The notes beneath the pieces were generated by a model. It saw only the letters and a list, made by a program, of their open reading frames with translations, did no database searches and was not told the origin of the DNA. A stretch of DNA of 64,000 bases from Thalassovita gelatinovora (GTDB lineage Bacteria; Pseudomonadota; Alphaproteobacteria; Rhodobacterales; Rhodobacteraceae). Of this stretch, positions 19,037 to 40,930 are shown piece by piece. Every line of letters starts with the position of its first letter. The stretch's first letter is position 1. The translations under genes and the position numbers were made by a program. Where the stretch lies: NCBI RefSeq assembly GCF_001458355.1, contig NZ_CYSA01000007.1, positions 2,501-66,500 on the forward strand, read 5' to 3'.

Positions 19037-19220
19037 CAACGCGCGATCTGGCAAATTAGAACCGCCAAGTGCCGCTGAGCAGCGCTCGCCGACCCAAATC
19101 CGGGCGCTGCACTTCGAAATTCGCAGAAATACTTGCAAATAATATAGTCGGCTATCCCCTTAAAGAGCCATGGAATTATGGCGTTTTCGGACGAGCATCG
19201 CTTGATGCAGACCGGGCGCA

Positions 19221-19257
19221 CCCTAAACAGGCTTCGAAACCTGTCCGTTAGTTAGGG
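19221..19257. promoter_or_regulatory. nested palindrome upstream of the EF-hand gene
   Basis: An 18-bp near-perfect palindrome, ACAGG-C-TTCGAA-A-CCTGT (19227-19244), is flanked by a second inverted pair, CCCTAA (19221-19226) and TTAGGG (19252-19257). It ends 30 bp before the EF-hand start codon. It could be a dimer-binding operator or a leader stem-loop; the two readings cannot be separated by eye. Confidence 0.45.
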
Positions 19258-19287
19258 AGACAAGGTATTTAGTATTGGAGTAGACCG

Positions 19288-20151
19288 ATGAACGTGATGT
19301 CATCGATATCCGCATCCGTGATGAGTTGGTCGTCACACAGCCAGGAAACCCAGGAATCCACACGCGGTGAAAAGCTTGTCGCGCGACTGGATCAGGATCA
19401 GGATGGCGGCATTTCGGCAGAGGAATTGAAAGACACTCGGCTGGGTCGGCGCATGAGCGTCGACACGTTTTCCAAGATCGACGACGACAACGATGGCAAG
19501 CTTACAGCCGACGAAATCGATTCCTTCAGGGCAGACAACGATCTGTCGGATCGTCGTACCGGCAGTGCGCGCCGCGGCCATCATCATCGCCCGCCCCCCC
19601 CGCCAAGCGATACCGCAGACACGGTGTCGCAACTGGCCGATCTGCAAAGTGGGTCTTCAAGCGAAACGGAAACTTCGTTTACCATCGTGTCGTTTGAATC
19701 GACAACGACCAAAAGTTCAGGCGAAACGACAACGACGAACTTCCTGGCGATTCAAGCCTATTCGAGAACGTCTTCATCGGCTGGAACCGACACGTCGAGC
19801 GATGCGACGGTGGATGCCGAGGCGATCGACGTCACCCCGGGCACCATGGCTGATGCGGGCGCAGGTGCTGAAACCGCCGTGGTCACAGAGACTGCGGATA
19901 ACAGCGCGATGACCGCATCGGCCGAAACAAGCGATGCCGTCATTCTTGCCCAGACGATCAACGCGACCAACGAGCCTGACAGTGCTGCGGAAATTCTTGA
20001 TGAAGTCGCTGCCGCCGAGGCCGCCGAAGCCGCAGCGGCAACAGAGGAGGTTGCGACCGCCGATGAGACCGCCAAGATTGTGACCTCATCGATCAATATG
20101 ACGGCGCTGTTTGCTTATTCGAAAACCGTAGAAATGGCGACTTCGGCTTGA
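19288..20151 (+). CDS. EF-hand calcium-binding protein with low-complexity Ser/Thr/Ala-rich tail
   Basis: A 287-residue protein with no hydrophobic signal. It has a Ser-rich N-terminus (1-25), two canonical EF-hand loops (D35, D37, D39, G40, S43, E46 and D65, D67, D69, K71, T73, E76), a His/Pro patch (HHHRPPPPP, 98-106), then about 180 residues of Ser/Thr/Ala/Glu-rich low complexity. Two short similar stretches, AIQAYSRTS near 155 and ALFAYSKTV near 274, may be a repeated element. TTGGAG precedes the ATG. EF-hand proteins with a Ser-rich start of this kind are seen in proteobacteria without a known role. Calcium binding is strongly suggested; location and function are open. Confidence 0.85.
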   Translation: MNVMSSISASVMSWSSHSQETQESTRGEKLVARLDQDQDGGISAEELKDTRLGRRMSVDTFSKIDDDNDGKLTADEIDSFRADNDLSDRRTGSARRGHHHRPPPPPSDTADTVSQLADLQSGSSSETETSFTIVSFESTTTKSSGETTTTNFLAIQAYSRTSSSAGTDTSSDATVDAEAIDVTPGTMADAGAGAETAVVTETADNSAMTASAETSDAVILAQTINATNEPDSAAEILDEVAAAEAAEAAAATEEVATADETAKIVTSSINMTALFAYSKTVEMATSA

Positions 20152-20197: not shown

Positions 20198-21043
20198 TCA
20201 GCCCTGAACGATGGTCCGGGTCGGGAAGGGAATATCGACCCCGGCGGCGTCCAGTGCTTCTTTCACCTTGCGTTTCATGTCGGCCTGGTAGGTGAAATAA
20301 TCTGACGAATTCACCCATGTCCGGGCCAGGAAATCGACCGAAGACGCACCCAAATTGTTGACCTGCACGAATTCGGCCGGATCTTTCAGCGTCCGCGGAT
20401 CGGCCATCAGCGTCGTTCGAATGGTGTCTTCAGCCAGTTTCAGATCGGCACCATAGCCAACCCCGAATACCCATTCGGCGCGCCGGGTGCCATTGGTCGA
20501 ATAATTGGTGATCGTATTGCCCCAGACATTGGCGTTGGGAATGATGACTTGCACATTGTCGGGCCGCGCCAGTTCCGTGCAATTGAGCGATATGGTCATG
20601 ACCGTGCCCATTTGTCCCGAAACTTCAACGAAATCGCCCAGTTTGAAGGGGCGGAACACCACGATCATCACCCCGGCGGCGACGTTGGACAATGTCCCTT
20701 GCAGCGCCAGACCGATGGCCAGACCCGCCGCACCGATGACCGCCACGATCGATGTGGTTTGCACCCCGAATGTGTTCAGCACGAACAAAACGGCAAAGGT
20801 CAGAATCGCGTAGCGCGCCAAATTACCAAGGAAGGTAAACAACGTATCGTCCAGCTCCTTGTATTTCTGCCCCAACCGGATCAGCCGCCGTCGGACCCAG
20901 CCCGAAACGAAATAACCCAGCACCAGAAGCGCGACCGCCCCAAGCACCGATCCGACCGCCGACGCTAGGAATTCCACGGACAACAGGTCGGCGACAGTTT
21001 GGCCGTTCCAGACCTCGGTCATCATCAAATCAGTCAGGGTCAT
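20198..21043 (-). CDS. mscS: small-conductance mechanosensitive channel, MscS type
   Basis: A 281-residue inner-membrane channel that opens under membrane tension to relieve hypo-osmotic shock. It has three membrane helices; the pore helix reads [25 protein letters not shown], followed by [12 protein letters not shown], the hallmark lead into the beta domain, then [16 protein letters not shown]. Length is that of the basic MscS form. The start overlaps the pterin dehydratase stop by 4 bp (21040-21043), placing it last in a minus-strand operon. Confidence 0.95.
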
Positions 21044-23890: not shown

Positions 23891-25198
23891 TTATTCGCGA
23901 AACGCCTTTACGAAATAGTCGGTCACCGGTTTGAGCAGATAGGCTAACGGTGTACGGTCAGCAGTACGGATAAAGGATTCCACCGGCATGCCGGGCACCA
24001 ATACGACACCTTCAGGAAGCCGTTCCATTTCACCGTCCTTGATCAGGATTTCCGCCCGGTAATATGAACGCCCCGAGTTTTCATCGGTAAAGGCGTCAGC
24101 GGACACTTTGCTGACCCTGCCGAACAGTTCCGGCGTGGTCCGCTGATCCAGCGCGGGCAAGCGCAGGATCACGTCCTGACCGGGATAAACCTGATCGATG
24201 TTGATGGTTTCAACCTGGCTGGCGATCACCAACGGGCGGTCCTGTGGCACCAGAAACATCACCGGATCGGCTGGGCGGATCACAGACCGGGGGGCAAAGA
24301 ACCGCATTCCGTAAACAACACCGGAAACCGGTGCGCGGATGTCGAGACGGCCAAGCCGGCTGATCAGAGACCGACGATTTTCGGCCAGTTCCAATTCGCG
24401 ATATTGCAAATCGCGCAGCCGCGATACGGCTTCTTCCCGACGGGTGGTATCAAGCTTGAGAATCTCGATCTCGATCTCGGTGATCCGACCTTCGGCCTGT
24501 GCGGCCTGTGCAATCAGGTTGCCAACTTGTCCGCTAAGCCCGGCCTGTTCGCGCTGCAAACCAAGAACGCGTGACGATTGCGCCAATCCGCGCTCCAGCA
24601 GAGATTGTTGATTTTCGAGTTCTTCATCGATCAGCGCCTGCTGTTTTTCTAACGCACTTTGCTGCGCCTTGATGCCGTCGATTTGGCTGCTGATCTGCGC
24701 TTTGCGTTTCTGTAGCTGATCGATTTCCTGCGCTTCAGAGGCATCACGTGCTCGCACCAGCCGGACTTGACCTTCGATCAAATCATAAACGTCGGGGTTT
24801 TCCTTGGCAGCCTGCAGCAGCTCCGGTTCAAACTCGATATCAGACTTGCCGTCTTGTTCTGCTTCCAGACGGCCGCGCCGGGCCATCAATTCGAATAATT
24901 GCCCCTCGACGATGGACAATTCGGATTGCAGGTCGGTCGGATCAAGGCGCACCAGCAGTTGATCGGCTTCGACGAAATCGCCTTCTTCGACCAACAATTC
25001 GGAAATTACACCACCATCGGGGTGTTGCACCACCTGACGATTTTGCTCGACCTCAATCTGACCGCTGGCAACGATTGCGCCCGCGATCTGGGTCAGTGAC
25101 GCCCAGACGCCGAACCCTCCGACCAGCAGCGCCAACGCGAAGACCCCAATGACAAACGGTATCCGGACGGGGTAAGGTTTGGGTCCTTGCGGCGTCAT
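23891..25198 (-). CDS. prsE: type I secretion adaptor, HlyD family (PrsE/PrtE-like)
   Basis: A 435-residue membrane fusion protein. One membrane anchor (VIGVFALALLVGGFGVWASL, about 15-34) leads to a lipoyl domain (GGVISELLVEEGDFVEADQLLVRLDPTD), a long coiled coil (about 85-270) and a C-terminal beta-barrel region (RAPVSGVVYGMRFFAPRSVIRPADPVMFLVPQD). This is the standard layout of RTX exporter adaptors. Its start overlaps the stop of the ATPase gene by 4 bp (25195-25198). The outer-membrane TolC partner is not in the window. Confidence 0.93.
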   Translation of the reverse strand: MTPQGPKPYPVRIPFVIGVFALALLVGGFGVWASLTQIAGAIVASGQIEVEQNRQVVQHPDGGVISELLVEEGDFVEADQLLVRLDPTDLQSELSIVEGQLFELMARRGRLEAEQDGKSDIEFEPELLQAAKENPDVYDLIEGQVRLVRARDASEAQEIDQLQKRKAQISSQIDGIKAQQSALEKQQALIDEELENQQSLLERGLAQSSRVLGLQREQAGLSGQVGNLIAQAAQAEGRITEIEIEILKLDTTRREEAVSRLRDLQYRELELAENRRSLISRLGRLDIRAPVSGVVYGMRFFAPRSVIRPADPVMFLVPQDRPLVIASQVETINIDQVYPGQDVILRLPALDQRTTPELFGRVSKVSADAFTDENSGRSYYRAEILIKDGEMERLPEGVVLVPGMPVESFIRTADRTPLAYLLKPVTDYFVKAFRE

Positions 25199-26937
25199 TG
25201 TACCCCCCCCTGACCAGTTGCTTTTTGCAACTGTTGCGAATTTTTAACCACTTCTCGCAATACCTCGTCCTTGGGACCAAACGCCTTGGCCGCGCCGTTT
25301 TCCAGCATCAATAGCAGATCGCATTCCTGAATCGCCGCAGGACGATGCGCCATGATGATCACTGATTTGCCTTCGGATTTTAGCGTCCGGATGGCCGAAT
25401 TCAGCGCCATGGAACCTTCGTTGTCGAGGTTGGAATTGGGTTCATCCAGGACCAAAATGACCGGGGCGGAATACATCGCGCGTGCCAGCCCGATCCGTTG
25501 AATCTGACCGCCGGACAACCGCCCGCCTGATGCGGTGACGCGGGTATCATAACCATTGGGCAGTTTAAGGATCATCGCATGGGCATCGGCGCGTTTGGCG
25601 GCGGCAACGACTTTTTCAGGATCCGGGTCGGGGGACAGGCGGGCGATATTTTCGGAAATGGTACCGTCAAACAGTTCCACCCGTTGCGGCAGATAGCCGA
25701 TCAACTGGCCTAGAACCGTGGGATCGTATTGGTCCAGTGTCGCCCCGTCGAGCCGTATCTTGCCGCCTGCGGGCCGCCAAAGCCCGGTGATTGCCCGCGC
25801 CAGCGAAGATTTGCCCGCACCGGACGGACCGATTACCCCCAGCGCGGTGCCTGGTGGCAGCAAGAAGTTGATCATCCGCAGCGTCGCCTGTGCTTCGCCC
25901 GGGGGTACCACGGTCATGCTTTGAACTTCCAGCTTCGCCTGTGGGGTCGGCAACGGTGTCCGTTCGGTTTCCGGCGGCACCAGGGACAGCAATTCGGCCA
26001 AGTTGCTCCAGCCTTTGCTGGCGCGCTGCACCACCGACCACTGATTGATCAGCATCTCGATCGGGGCCAAAGCCCGCCCCATCAGGATCGACCCGGCAAT
26101 CATCGCGCCGGGCGATAATTCGCCCTGCAACACCAGATAGGCGCCCAGACCCAACATCGCCGATTGCAGGAATTGCCGGAAGGTTTTCGACAAAACCGAA
26201 AAACCACCACCGGAATCGGTGGCGGTGATATATTGGCTCAGCGCCCGATTTCGACTTTTCTCCCAACGATGGAAGGTGGCTTCACGCATCCCCATCGCCT
26301 GCACAGATTCAGCCTCGGCTTGCAGTTGCGATGCGAAATGCTCAGACGTCACAACTGACTGATTGGCCTGTGCCATCGGTTGTCGGGTCAAGGTCTGGTT
26401 GGCCAAAGTAATCAGAACAAGAACGACACCGCCGCTAATCGCCAAATAGCCAAGCCAAGGATGGAAGATCATGATCCCGAACAGGAAAAATGGCGTCCAG
26501 GGGATGTCGAAAAATGCGGTCAGCGCCGGTGAGCTGATCAGCCGCTGCACCGCTTCCAGATCGCGCAGACCGGTGGCGGTCAGTTGGTCGGGTTTCAGCG
26601 CTGACTTGCGGATCACCGCGTCAAAGACACGGCGGTCCAGCCGTGACTGAAACCGCGCACCGACACGCGCCATGATCCTGGTCCGGGCGACATCCAGCAA
26701 TCCCATCATCAAGAACAGGAACGCCACCAGTAGGGTCAGACCAAACAGGGTTTCGACTGATCGGCTGCCTAATACGCGGTCATAAACCTGCAACATGTAA
26801 AGCGGGCTGGTCAGCATCAAAAGATTAACGAAGAAGCTGAACAGCGCGACCGCCCAATAAAGCCCTCGGCTTTCGCGCCGTGCTGCCAGCAATTCCTGCC
26901 GACCGGTTTCCATCTGTCTGGGAGTCATCCGCGTCAT
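25195..26937 (-). CDS. prsD: type I secretion ABC transporter, permease/ATPase (PrsD/PrtD-like)
   Basis: A 580-residue half-transporter of the PrtD/PrsD/RsaD class. Five or six membrane helices (residues about 28-290) come first, with the family-typical LTSPLYMLQVYDRVLGSRS after the first helix. The ATPase domain has Walker A GPSGAGKS (370-377), signature LSGGQIQR (474-481) and Walker B VILVLDEP (493-500). There is no C39 peptidase domain, so cargo with C-terminal signals, such as RTX proteins, is expected. The RTX/Hint protein at 38249-40930 is the only visible candidate cargo. Divergent from mlaA. Confidence 0.95.
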   Translation of the reverse strand: MTRMTPRQMETGRQELLAARRESRGLYWAVALFSFFVNLLMLTSPLYMLQVYDRVLGSRSVETLFGLTLLVAFLFLMMGLLDVARTRIMARVGARFQSRLDRRVFDAVIRKSALKPDQLTATGLRDLEAVQRLISSPALTAFFDIPWTPFFLFGIMIFHPWLGYLAISGGVVLVLITLANQTLTRQPMAQANQSVVTSEHFASQLQAEAESVQAMGMREATFHRWEKSRNRALSQYITATDSGGGFSVLSKTFRQFLQSAMLGLGAYLVLQGELSPGAMIAGSILMGRALAPIEMLINQWSVVQRASKGWSNLAELLSLVPPETERTPLPTPQAKLEVQSMTVVPPGEAQATLRMINFLLPPGTALGVIGPSGAGKSSLARAITGLWRPAGGKIRLDGATLDQYDPTVLGQLIGYLPQRVELFDGTISENIARLSPDPDPEKVVAAAKRADAHAMILKLPNGYDTRVTASGGRLSGGQIQRIGLARAMYSAPVILVLDEPNSNLDNEGSMALNSAIRTLKSEGKSVIIMAHRPAAIQECDLLLMLENGAAKAFGPKDEVLREVVKNSQQLQKATGQGGVQ

Positions 26938-38248: not shown

Positions 38249-40930
38249 TCAGCAAACCGGCTCCAACTCGTAAATCCGGGGCGTATCGATCTGCTTCAGT
38301 GAACGCACCCTGCGACCACTGAGCAGCGGGCAAACCCGCGACCCATAGATGCCCTCGACCGCGACATCACCATTCAGTGCCGGAATCAGCTGCGGCGCTG
38401 CGATTGCGATTTCAATCTGCGCCTGCGGTCCCAGCGCCGCCAGTGCCAACGGGCCGGGCCACATGCTTTCCGCCAGCATTCCATCGGTCCAAAGCAGCGC
38501 GTGCCGCGGCAACAACAAGTGGTGATACTCCACCGATTTCGTGCCATGCGCCACGCGGAAACGCGGGTCGCGATGTTCGGCCAAATGGATCGCCCGGACC
38601 AGTCTCAGCCCGTTTTTGGTTTGGACTGGAACCGCATGCTGCGGCGACAAACGCAATTCACGATCATTGCCCAGCGCACCGCGCCGGAACACGACCGGGC
38701 GCAGACGCGGGTGCGCGTCAAGAATATCCCGGTCCAGATGTCGCCCACCGGCCCAAAGGATTGGTTGCACCGATCCGTCGGCACAGCTGACCAAATCGCC
38801 CGCTTGCAACGTTTCGACCGGCACCTCACCCCGTGGGGTAGCAATTAGGCTGCCCTTGACGAAACAAGGGACACCCATCGCATAAAGTTGCCCGGGGTTG
38901 GAAACAGATGCCGGGCTGACGCCAGACAGCAGCATGGATTCGCCATTCGGGAAGGTCAGAACCGCATTGCCCGACCCATCGTCACTGACCACCACATCCC
39001 AGGTTTCGACCGCTTCGCCATCGGCATCGATCAGTGACGAAACATCAAGCTGGTCGTTGGTGAACCCATCGCGATCGTCGTCCCCCATATTGAAATCCGA
39101 AATGGTGTCGTCACCGGAATCGTTCGTCGCCACGAAAGTGTCGTATCCAGTGCCACCCGACAGCACGTCATTGCCAGCATCACCCGATAGGGTGTCATTG
39201 CCGTCGCCACCCGACAGCGTATCATTGCCGTCGCCACCCGACAGCGTATCATGGCCGGTGCCGCCAGACAGAGCATCATCCCCGCCATCCCCTGACAGCA
39301 CATCGTTGCCGTCGCCACCCGACAGCGCATCATTACCGTCGCCGCCAGACAGTGTATCATGGCCGGTGCCGCCAGACAGAACATCATTCCCGCCATCCCC
39401 TGACAGCACATCGTTGCCGTCGTCACCCGAAAGCGTATCATTACCGTCGCCACCAGACAGCGTGTCTTGGCCAGTACCACCAGACAGTACATCGTTGCCT
39501 GCGTCTCCCGACAGCACATCATCCCCATCGCCGCCTGACAGTGTATCGTCGCCAGATCCGGCATAGATCGTGTCATCCCCGGCCCCGCCATCGATCTGAT
39601 CGTCATCGGTCATGCCGGTGGCGAATTCGGCATCCCAGCGGCTTTGGGCGAGGTAATCTATCGAATTGCGATCGTTGCCCGAGATCAGCGAATTCAGCGT
39701 AATGGAATCGATTGGTCCGGCTTCCAACGCGGCCTGATCACTGTTGTAATTGTATTCCGGAGCCATAAACAGATCGCCATCAACGGTCTGGAAAACGACA
39801 GCGCTGATCGTGGCGCTGGACCCGTCTGCATAAGTAAGCGTGGCATCGTAGACCAGAACCGAGTCGATGTAGGTCTGCTCGCCATTAATGAAAATGGCAT
39901 CCGCTGAACCGCTGGTGCTGTCGGTGGCAACTGCCCGGACACCATGCACGTTCGCCGACGCGTTGGGGGCATCCATATCGGCGAAATGATCCGTGAGTGG
40001 ATCGCTGTCTGAACCATAAGTGCCAAGTGCCGAATTAGCGTTTTCGGCACCATAGTTCGAATTGTCGCGGCTTTGATATTCGTCGGGGTCCAGGTCCCGG
40101 GCCGTGCCGAGGCTGATCACGGTGTAAGACGTGCTCTGTCCCCCGCTACCACCTGTGGTGGCGGCACCGCCACCGCCCATGATCAGATCGTTGCCGTCGC
40201 CACCATCGATGGAGTCATCGCCACCGCCACCTTGGATCGTATCGTCCTCGGCGCCGCCGCTGAGAATGTCATCGCCGTCACCACCTTCGATCGAATCGGT
40301 ACCGGCACCACCTTCTATGGAATCGTCGCCTTTCCCGGCATCAATCGAGTCATTGCCGGAACCGCCATCTACGGTATCGTCCCCATCATTTGCGGTGATG
40401 GTGTCGTGCCTATCTCCGCCAACCAACGATTCGTCGCCTTCGCTGGCATACATTTCATTGGCCGCACCGGATTCGTATGTTTGGGAATCAATCTCGCGAA
40501 AGCTCGGCTCGGTGCCCGGGCCGACATCCTCGATAGACGTGACTTCATAGTGAACGCCGGGCGTTATGTGGCCATCGACGACATAGCCCTGAAAAACACC
40601 GTTAATTTCTATCGAATAAACATTGATATTGGTGCCATCAGGTGCGCTGAGGGTGATCCGATCTTCTGCATAACCTTGTCCGCGCCCGGTGAGGGTTCCG
40701 TTTTCATCGTAGACGGCCAGATACTGATTGGTGTCATCCCCCGTTTCATCGGAAGTCTGATCCCCATTGAGGAGAGCATCCTCGGAATCGTAGAAATCAA
40801 AGGTGATTGCATTCGCGGAACTGCTCCAGCCTGAATCCAACACCAGACTGTCACCGGTCGTAAAGGAACCACTTCCATCCGTATTTGCCAGCTGATCGGG
40901 GCTGAAACCTGCAAAAGAAATCTGTGCCAT
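38249..40930 (-). CDS. RTX-type calcium-binding protein with C-terminal Hint domain, probable type I secretion cargo
   Basis: An 893-residue acidic protein without a classical signal. In order: an unrecognised N-terminal domain (1-164), a first RTX block of GGxGxDx(L/I) nonapeptides (165-255), a domain I cannot place (265-440), a larger RTX block of about 16 units (443-600, DNA 39131-39604), a linker (600-688), and a Hint_2 domain starting at C689 ([24 protein letters not shown], later LSPQHAV). RTX blocks fold on calcium outside the cell; Hint domains descend from self-cleaving proteins, and cleavage before C689 is possible. The prsDE-like exporter at 23.9-26.9 kb is the natural partner. GAGG precedes the ATG, just after a hairpin. 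Confidence 0.92.
39131..39604 (-). repeat. tandem 27-bp coding repeats of the second RTX block
   Basis: About 17 units of 27 bp encode GGxGxD-type nonapeptides. Neighbouring units are close to identical in DNA: the codons for [10 protein letters not shown] and its variants return in the same spelling many times, and longer multi-unit blocks are repeated too. This marks recent duplication or gene conversion and makes the region prone to length change and to assembly error. Confidence 0.9.

What the first reader, a model, noticed from the sequence alone, without database searches (positions are those of the whole stretch)
19288..20151. EF-hand protein with low-complexity tail and no signal peptide
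Two canonical EF-hand loops are followed by a His/Pro patch and about 180 residues of Ser/Thr/Ala/Glu-rich sequence ending in AYSKT-type elements. There is no hydrophobic signal, no transmembrane segment and no known partner. The two AYS(R/K)T elements, near 155 and 274, suggest an internal repeat. It could be a calcium-responsive surface, exported or flagellum-linked protein.
Basis: partly seen in the sequence, partly recalled or inferred. Interest (0 to 1): 0.6.

Follow-up and report, generated by a model that had tools for sequence, protein, structure and literature searches.

The report
Calcium-binding protein with flagellar-type promoter
A marine bacterium of the genus Thalassovita makes an unstudied calcium-binding protein that has no ordinary export signal but keeps a distinctive tail end in all six species that carry it, and the gene is preceded by a conserved switch like those of the late flagellar genes, so it may be a calcium sensor made together with the flagellum.

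Summary
The gene at 19288-20151 (+) is real and much as described: two canonical EF-hand loops, a His/Pro patch, a disordered Ala/Thr/Ser tail, and no signal peptide or membrane segment. Both AYS(R/K)T elements are present, at residues 157 and 276. Only the terminal one is kept in all six orthologues. The family was found only in Thalassovita (6 of 9 genomes), next to a mechanosensitive-channel gene. The EF-hand pair resembles XopAW-type EF-hand proteins, but membership fails (31.8 bits against a cut-off of 120). One species has lost both EF-hand loops yet keeps the tail, so the tail has its own role. New here: a promoter element, TAAACA-N15-CCGT, lies 63-70 bases upstream of the start in every species. 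It resembles the sites upstream of fliD, fliC and flgM. All five genomes with FliA carry the gene, but the carriers form one clade, and one carrier has no detectable flagellum. Best reading: a calcium-binding protein co-expressed with late flagellar genes, probably exported without a Sec signal, with the C-terminal end as docking or export signal. EF-hand loops and promoter conservation are shown; FliA control is supported; export and function are inferred.

The parts
19224..19250 (+). Conserved promoter-like element TAAACA-N15-CCGTTA, 64 nt upstream of the ATG; resembles FliA (sigma-28) promoters
   Evidence: Same boxes, spacing and position in G000, G001, G003, G008, and by eye in G002 and G004; no shared dyad of this kind in 200 shuffles of three lineages
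19277..19280 (+). Ribosome-binding site GGAG, 7 nt before the ATG
   Evidence: Sequence
19288..20151 (+). EF-hand protein gene, 287 aa
   Evidence: orthologues in 6 of 9 Thalassovita genomes
19288..19365 (+). Ser-rich N-terminus (residues 1-26), 11 Ser/Thr in the first 25, highest of 57 window genes; no signal peptide
19390..19425 (+). EF-hand loop 1 (residues 35-46), DQDQDGGISAEE
19480..19515 (+). EF-hand loop 2 (residues 65-76), DDDNDGKLTADE
19579..19605 (+). His/Pro patch HHHRPPPPP (residues 98-106)
   Evidence: Sequence
19666..19776 (+). Internal copy of the tail module (residues 127-163), containing NFLAIQAYSRT; resembles the C-terminus of the T. autumnalis-group orthologues
20095..20133 (+). 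C-terminal motif N-x-x-A-[IL]-x-A-Y-[SA]-[KR]-T-x-E (residues 270-282); 8-11 residues follow the Tyr in all six orthologues
20198..21043 (-). MscS-type mechanosensitive channel gene, convergent neighbour, syntenic in the orthologues (13 kb away in T. mediterranea); probably not functionally linked
23891..26937 (-). HlyD-type membrane fusion protein and ABC transporter (type I secretion type); the HlyD gene is also kept at this locus in species without the EF-hand gene

Best explanation
A genus-specific EF-hand calcium-binding protein transcribed from its own FliA (sigma-28)-type promoter, so made late in flagellar assembly with flagellin and the filament cap. The EF-hand pair binds calcium. 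The Ser-rich N-terminus and disordered tail keep it unfolded enough for Sec-independent export, most likely by the flagellar export apparatus, and the conserved C-terminal element is the docking or chaperone/export signal. Outside, at seawater calcium (about 10 mM, general knowledge), the EF-hand pair would fold and act at the filament or cell surface. Shown: EF loops, family range, promoter conservation, terminal motif, loss of EF loops in one species. Supported: FliA control. Inferred: export route, location and function.
For: EF-hands above Pfam cut-offs. Promoter element with identical spacing 63-70 nt upstream of the ATG; the upstream regions of three lineages share no other such dyad and shuffles give 0 of 200. 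Sites of the same kind lie upstream of fliD in G000, G002, G008 (TAAACAAAA...CGTT, spacing 17), flgM (TAAAAC...CGTTA, spacing 17) and fliC (TAAACTTTT...CGTT, spacing 16). Of 57 window genes only this one has the motif upstream, 0.42 expected. FliA directs fliC, fliD and some chemotaxis genes in Rhodobacter sphaeroides (PMC7277832). FliA is found in G000, G001, G002, G003, G008, all of which carry the gene; none of the three non-carriers has a FliA over the cut-off, and FlhA of G005 and G007 is of a distant type. Ser/Thr-richest N-terminus of the window. In T. mediterranea the EF loops are lost but the last 100 residues stay 63% identical to G002, so the tail is under its own constraint.
Against: Carriers form a single clade, so the co-occurrence with FliA is one event. 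G004 carries the gene but has no FliA over the cut-off and no FlhA or flagellin hit. The spacing (18 between TAAA and CGTT) is one longer than at flgM and fliD and two longer than at fliC. The exact pattern is not enriched genome-wide over its reversed control (5 against 9). The motif was found after looking. No export was tested, and structure models were poor (mean pLDDT 44 and 41).
Confidence: 0.42

Rival explanations
1. Type I secretion substrate: exported by an ABC/HlyD exporter such as the one at 23891-26937, with the conserved C-terminal end (invariant Glu followed by hydrophobic residues near the extreme C-terminus) as the uncleaved signal; folds on meeting external calcium.
For: HlyD and ABC genes in the same neighbourhood; the motif stays near the C-terminus in all orthologues although tail length varies; in the window protein, which also has an internal copy, a copy sits at the C-terminus.
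Against: The HlyD gene is kept at the locus in species lacking the EF-hand gene; no glycine-rich RTX repeats; does not explain the FliA-like promoter.
Confidence: 0.22
2. Cytosolic calcium buffer or sensor that is not exported; the conserved C-terminal end binds a cytosolic partner, for example a chemotaxis or motor-control protein, and the promoter couples it to motility.
For: No signal peptide or membrane segment; the promoter evidence fits equally well.
Against: The Ser-rich N-terminus and long disordered tail are unusual for a cytosolic EF-hand sensor (inference); no partner gene adjacent.
Confidence: 0.22
3. Member of the XopAW / calsymin kind of signal-peptide-less EF-hand proteins that act on a eukaryotic partner (for example marine algae), secreted during association.
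For: Best curated match is XopAW (E 1.2e-7); similar layout (Ser-rich start, EF pair, poly-Pro, Ser/Thr tail...IQAY... end) in an alphaproteobacterial XopAW-like protein (L082); R. etli calsymin is a secreted EF-hand protein (PMC10574481).
Against: 31.8 bits against a cut-off of 120; partial match; no dedicated type III secretion genes seen: at most one FlhA-family protein per genome, in the window's genome the one beside fliA and flhF.
Confidence: 0.08
4. A fast-evolving orphan protein with little function; the EF-hand pair is a relic.
For: Most of the protein diverges fast; EF loops lost in T. mediterranea; N-terminal dN/dS about 0.30.
Against: Strong constraint on the EF pair (dN 0.07 against dS 1.6, G002-G004), conserved promoter and C-terminus.
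Confidence: 0.06

Closest known systems
XopAW family (NCBIfam NF041410), type III secreted EF-hand effectors of Xanthomonas and relatives
   Same: EF-hand pair, low-complexity flanks; no signal peptide (for XopAW from general knowledge)
   Different: Score 31.8 against cut-off 120, partial alignment (profile 89-215 of 235); no dedicated type III system seen; own C-terminal motif
Calsymin (CasA) of Rhizobium etli
   Same: Secreted EF-hand protein of an alphaproteobacterium (PMC10574481)
   Different: Calsymin has three domains with EF-hand motifs and is tied to symbiosis; sequence not compared here
EF-hand proteins of other Rhodobacterales genera, L040 (289 aa) and L041 (243 aa)
   Same: EF-hand pair 49% identical over 70 residues and 58% over 57 residues
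   Different: Two EF pairs in tandem, no AY(S/A)(K/R)T end, no TAAA-N15..19-CGTT site upstream
Class IV (FliA-dependent) flagellar genes fliC and fliD
   Same: Similar promoter element with TAAAC and CGTT
   Different: Located outside the flagellar cluster; spacing 18 instead of 16-17; not a filament component by sequence

Membership tests
EF-hand calcium-binding proteins | Canonical 12-residue loops with D at 1, D/N at 3, D at 5, G at 6, E at 12 | tested here: met
   Both loops; Pfam above cut-off
EF-hand calcium-binding proteins | Calcium binding measured | not testable with these tools
   Needs purified protein
XopAW family | Score above the curated cut-off (120 bits) | tested here: not met
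   31.8 bits
XopAW family | Delivery by a type III secretion system | not testable with these tools
   At most one FlhA-family protein per genome; in the window's genome it lies beside fliA and flhF
FliA (sigma-28) regulon | TAAA and CGTT/CGAT boxes at the spacing of known FliA promoters | tested here: inconclusive
   Boxes match fliD, fliC, flgM of the same clade, but spacing is 18 against 16-17
FliA (sigma-28) regulon | Genome encodes FliA | tested here: met
   G000 218.6 bits, over the cut-off of 189.6; a FlgM-like gene is also present
FliA (sigma-28) regulon | Expression depends on FliA | not testable with these tools
   Needs a fliA deletion
Type I secretion substrates of the RTX kind | Glycine-rich nonapeptide repeats | tested here: not met
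   No HemolysinCabind match
Calsymin (CasA) | Three domains with EF-hand motifs (PMC10574481) | tested here: not met
   One EF-hand pair only

The most novel reading that the evidence does not exclude
A previously undescribed class of late flagellar gene product: a calcium-binding EF-hand protein made under FliA control and exported by the flagellum in marine Roseobacters, with a C-terminal AY(S/A)(K/R)T-x-E element as a new export or chaperone-docking signal, linking external calcium to the filament or to surface attachment.
Probability: 0.2. Interest if true: 0.7.

Novelty: new variant of a known kind. Interest (0 to 1): 0.45.

Why it matters
Few bacterial EF-hand proteins have a known role. 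A gene of this kind with a conserved flagellar-type promoter gives a direct, testable link between calcium and motility or the swim-and-stick life of marine Roseobacters, and a short conserved C-terminal motif whose role in export can be tested by deletion.

Tried and rejected
Other protein families: only weak or partial NCBIfam matches, and the tail matches no Pfam family above its cut-off. Solved structures: only generic EF-hand matches, best E 0.002. Search for the tail module in 296 family genomes: nothing convincing outside Thalassovita. Exact promoter pattern over the own genome and the genus: not enriched over the reversed control; one of the other hits (L108) is intergenic, upstream of a small ORF between two genes that look like chemoreceptors, the others mostly lie inside genes or next to unrelated genes. 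EcfG-type sigma (GGAAC-N16/17-CGTT, from memory) considered: the AAC and CGTT parts also fit, but TAAAC matches fliC and fliD better; not excluded. AlphaFold models have pLDDT 44 and 41, so no structure search was run on them. Functional link to the MscS gene rejected as weak: convergent, and in T. mediterranea the two lie 13 kb apart. One hand-typed row of alignment A2 starts ADFSF where the locus reads EAFSF; A2 was not used in any search.

Full report
WHAT IS THERE. The ORF 19288-20151 (+) encodes 287 residues, with a GGAG ribosome-binding site. It has a Ser-rich N-terminus (residues 1-26), two canonical EF-hand loops (35-46, 65-76), a His/Pro patch (98-106) and a 177-residue Ala/Thr/Ser/Glu tail with AYSRT at 157 and AYSKT at 276. 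Pfam EF-hand models score above cut-off. There is no signal peptide or transmembrane segment. Two AY[SA][RK]T motifs did not arise in 20000 shuffles of the tail.

FAMILY. Orthologues are in 6 of 9 Thalassovita genomes; genome records name Thalassobius sp. Cn5-15, Thalassovita autumnalis and T. mediterranea. All sit by the same MscS-type gene except in T. mediterranea, where they lie 13 kb apart. In four species a divergent leucine-rich-repeat gene of the STM4015 kind lies upstream. The orthologues share the terminal motif N-x-x-A-[IL]-x-A-Y-[SA]-[KR]-T-x-E, with 8-11 residues after the Tyr, and all but one share the EF pair. T. mediterranea has lost loop 1 and most of loop 2 yet keeps the tail end (last 100 residues 63% identical to G002). 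So the tail has a function that does not need the EF-hands. The first copy of AYSRT in the window protein resembles the C-terminal region of the T. autumnalis group; the second is the terminal copy. Between G002 and G004 dN/dS is about 0.30 in the N-terminus, 0.04 in the EF pair, 0.11 in the middle and 0.20 in the last 110 residues, where dS itself is low.

RELATIVES BEYOND THE GENUS. In 296 family genomes the tail module was not convincingly found elsewhere, whereas EF pairs with 49-58% identity over 57-70 residues exist (L040, L041). XopAW-like EF-hand proteins are common in Alphaproteobacteria (70 of 289 genomes at E 1e-8); many of those listed begin with what look like ordinary signal peptides, but a subset do not and have Ser-rich starts and poly-Pro patches (L074, L075, L082).

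PROMOTER. All six upstream regions hold TAAACA-N15-CCGT 63-70 nt before the ATG (distances for G002 and G004 counted by eye). The shared spaced dyad did not occur in 200 shuffles of three lineages. In a scan for TAAA-N15..19-CGTT upstream of genes, the flagellar clusters gave fliD in three genomes, a response-regulator gene beside fliA and one further gene in G001, and the window gave only this gene; 1 of 57 window genes against 0.42 expected. flgM and fliC carry related sites. In R. sphaeroides FliA drives fliC, fliD and some chemotaxis genes (PMC7277832). The spacing here is 18, against 17 at flgM and fliD and 16 at fliC; the assignment to FliA is therefore supported, not shown. The names fliD, flgM and motA in the fetched clusters rest on reading their sequences, not on a family search.

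CO-OCCURRENCE. FliA over the cut-off: G000, G001, G002, G003, G008. The gene: these five plus G004. G004 has no FliA over the cut-off and no flagellin or FlhA hit. G005 and G007 have a distant FlhA and lack the gene; G006 lacks FlhA and the gene. The carriers form one clade in the mscS tree, which does not include G007, so this is a single event and weak evidence. PMC12363192 reports that Rhodobacterales have three flagellar types, two spread horizontally; which type the FliA-bearing one here is was not tested.

MECHANISM. Most likely a calcium-binding protein made with late flagellar genes and exported without a Sec signal, with the terminal motif as docking or export signal. Export by the flagellum, by type I secretion, or none at all cannot be told apart here. 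Structure prediction was uninformative.

NOVELTY. The EF-hand fold is known. The combination of a conserved flagellar-type promoter, no signal peptide and a conserved terminal element appears to be a new variant; XopAW membership was tested and not met.

Noticed in passing
L069:16006-17022: T. mediterranea orthologue has lost EF loop 1 and most of loop 2 while keeping the tail: a natural separation of the two parts.
   Followed up: partly
L069:14974-15834 and the matching genes in L005, L006, L007: Leucine-rich-repeat gene of the STM4015 kind divergent from the EF-hand gene in four species; absent beside it in the window.
   Followed up: no
L108:1501-1889 (reverse complement): Site TAAACTTTT-N-CCGTTA 62 nt upstream of a 108-aa ORF of unknown kind, between two genes that look like chemoreceptors, in the window's own genome.
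   Followed up: partly
window 38249-40930 (-): RTX-repeat protein with a Hint domain; its C-terminus does not resemble that of the EF-hand protein.
   Followed up: partly
L114:10701-11333: Response-regulator gene beside fliA with a TAAA-N18-CGTT site 75 nt upstream, the same spacing as the EF-hand gene.
   Followed up: no
window 19161-19185 (+): Second TAAA-N17-CGTT site 127 nt upstream of the EF-hand gene; its conservation in the other species was not examined.
   Followed up: no
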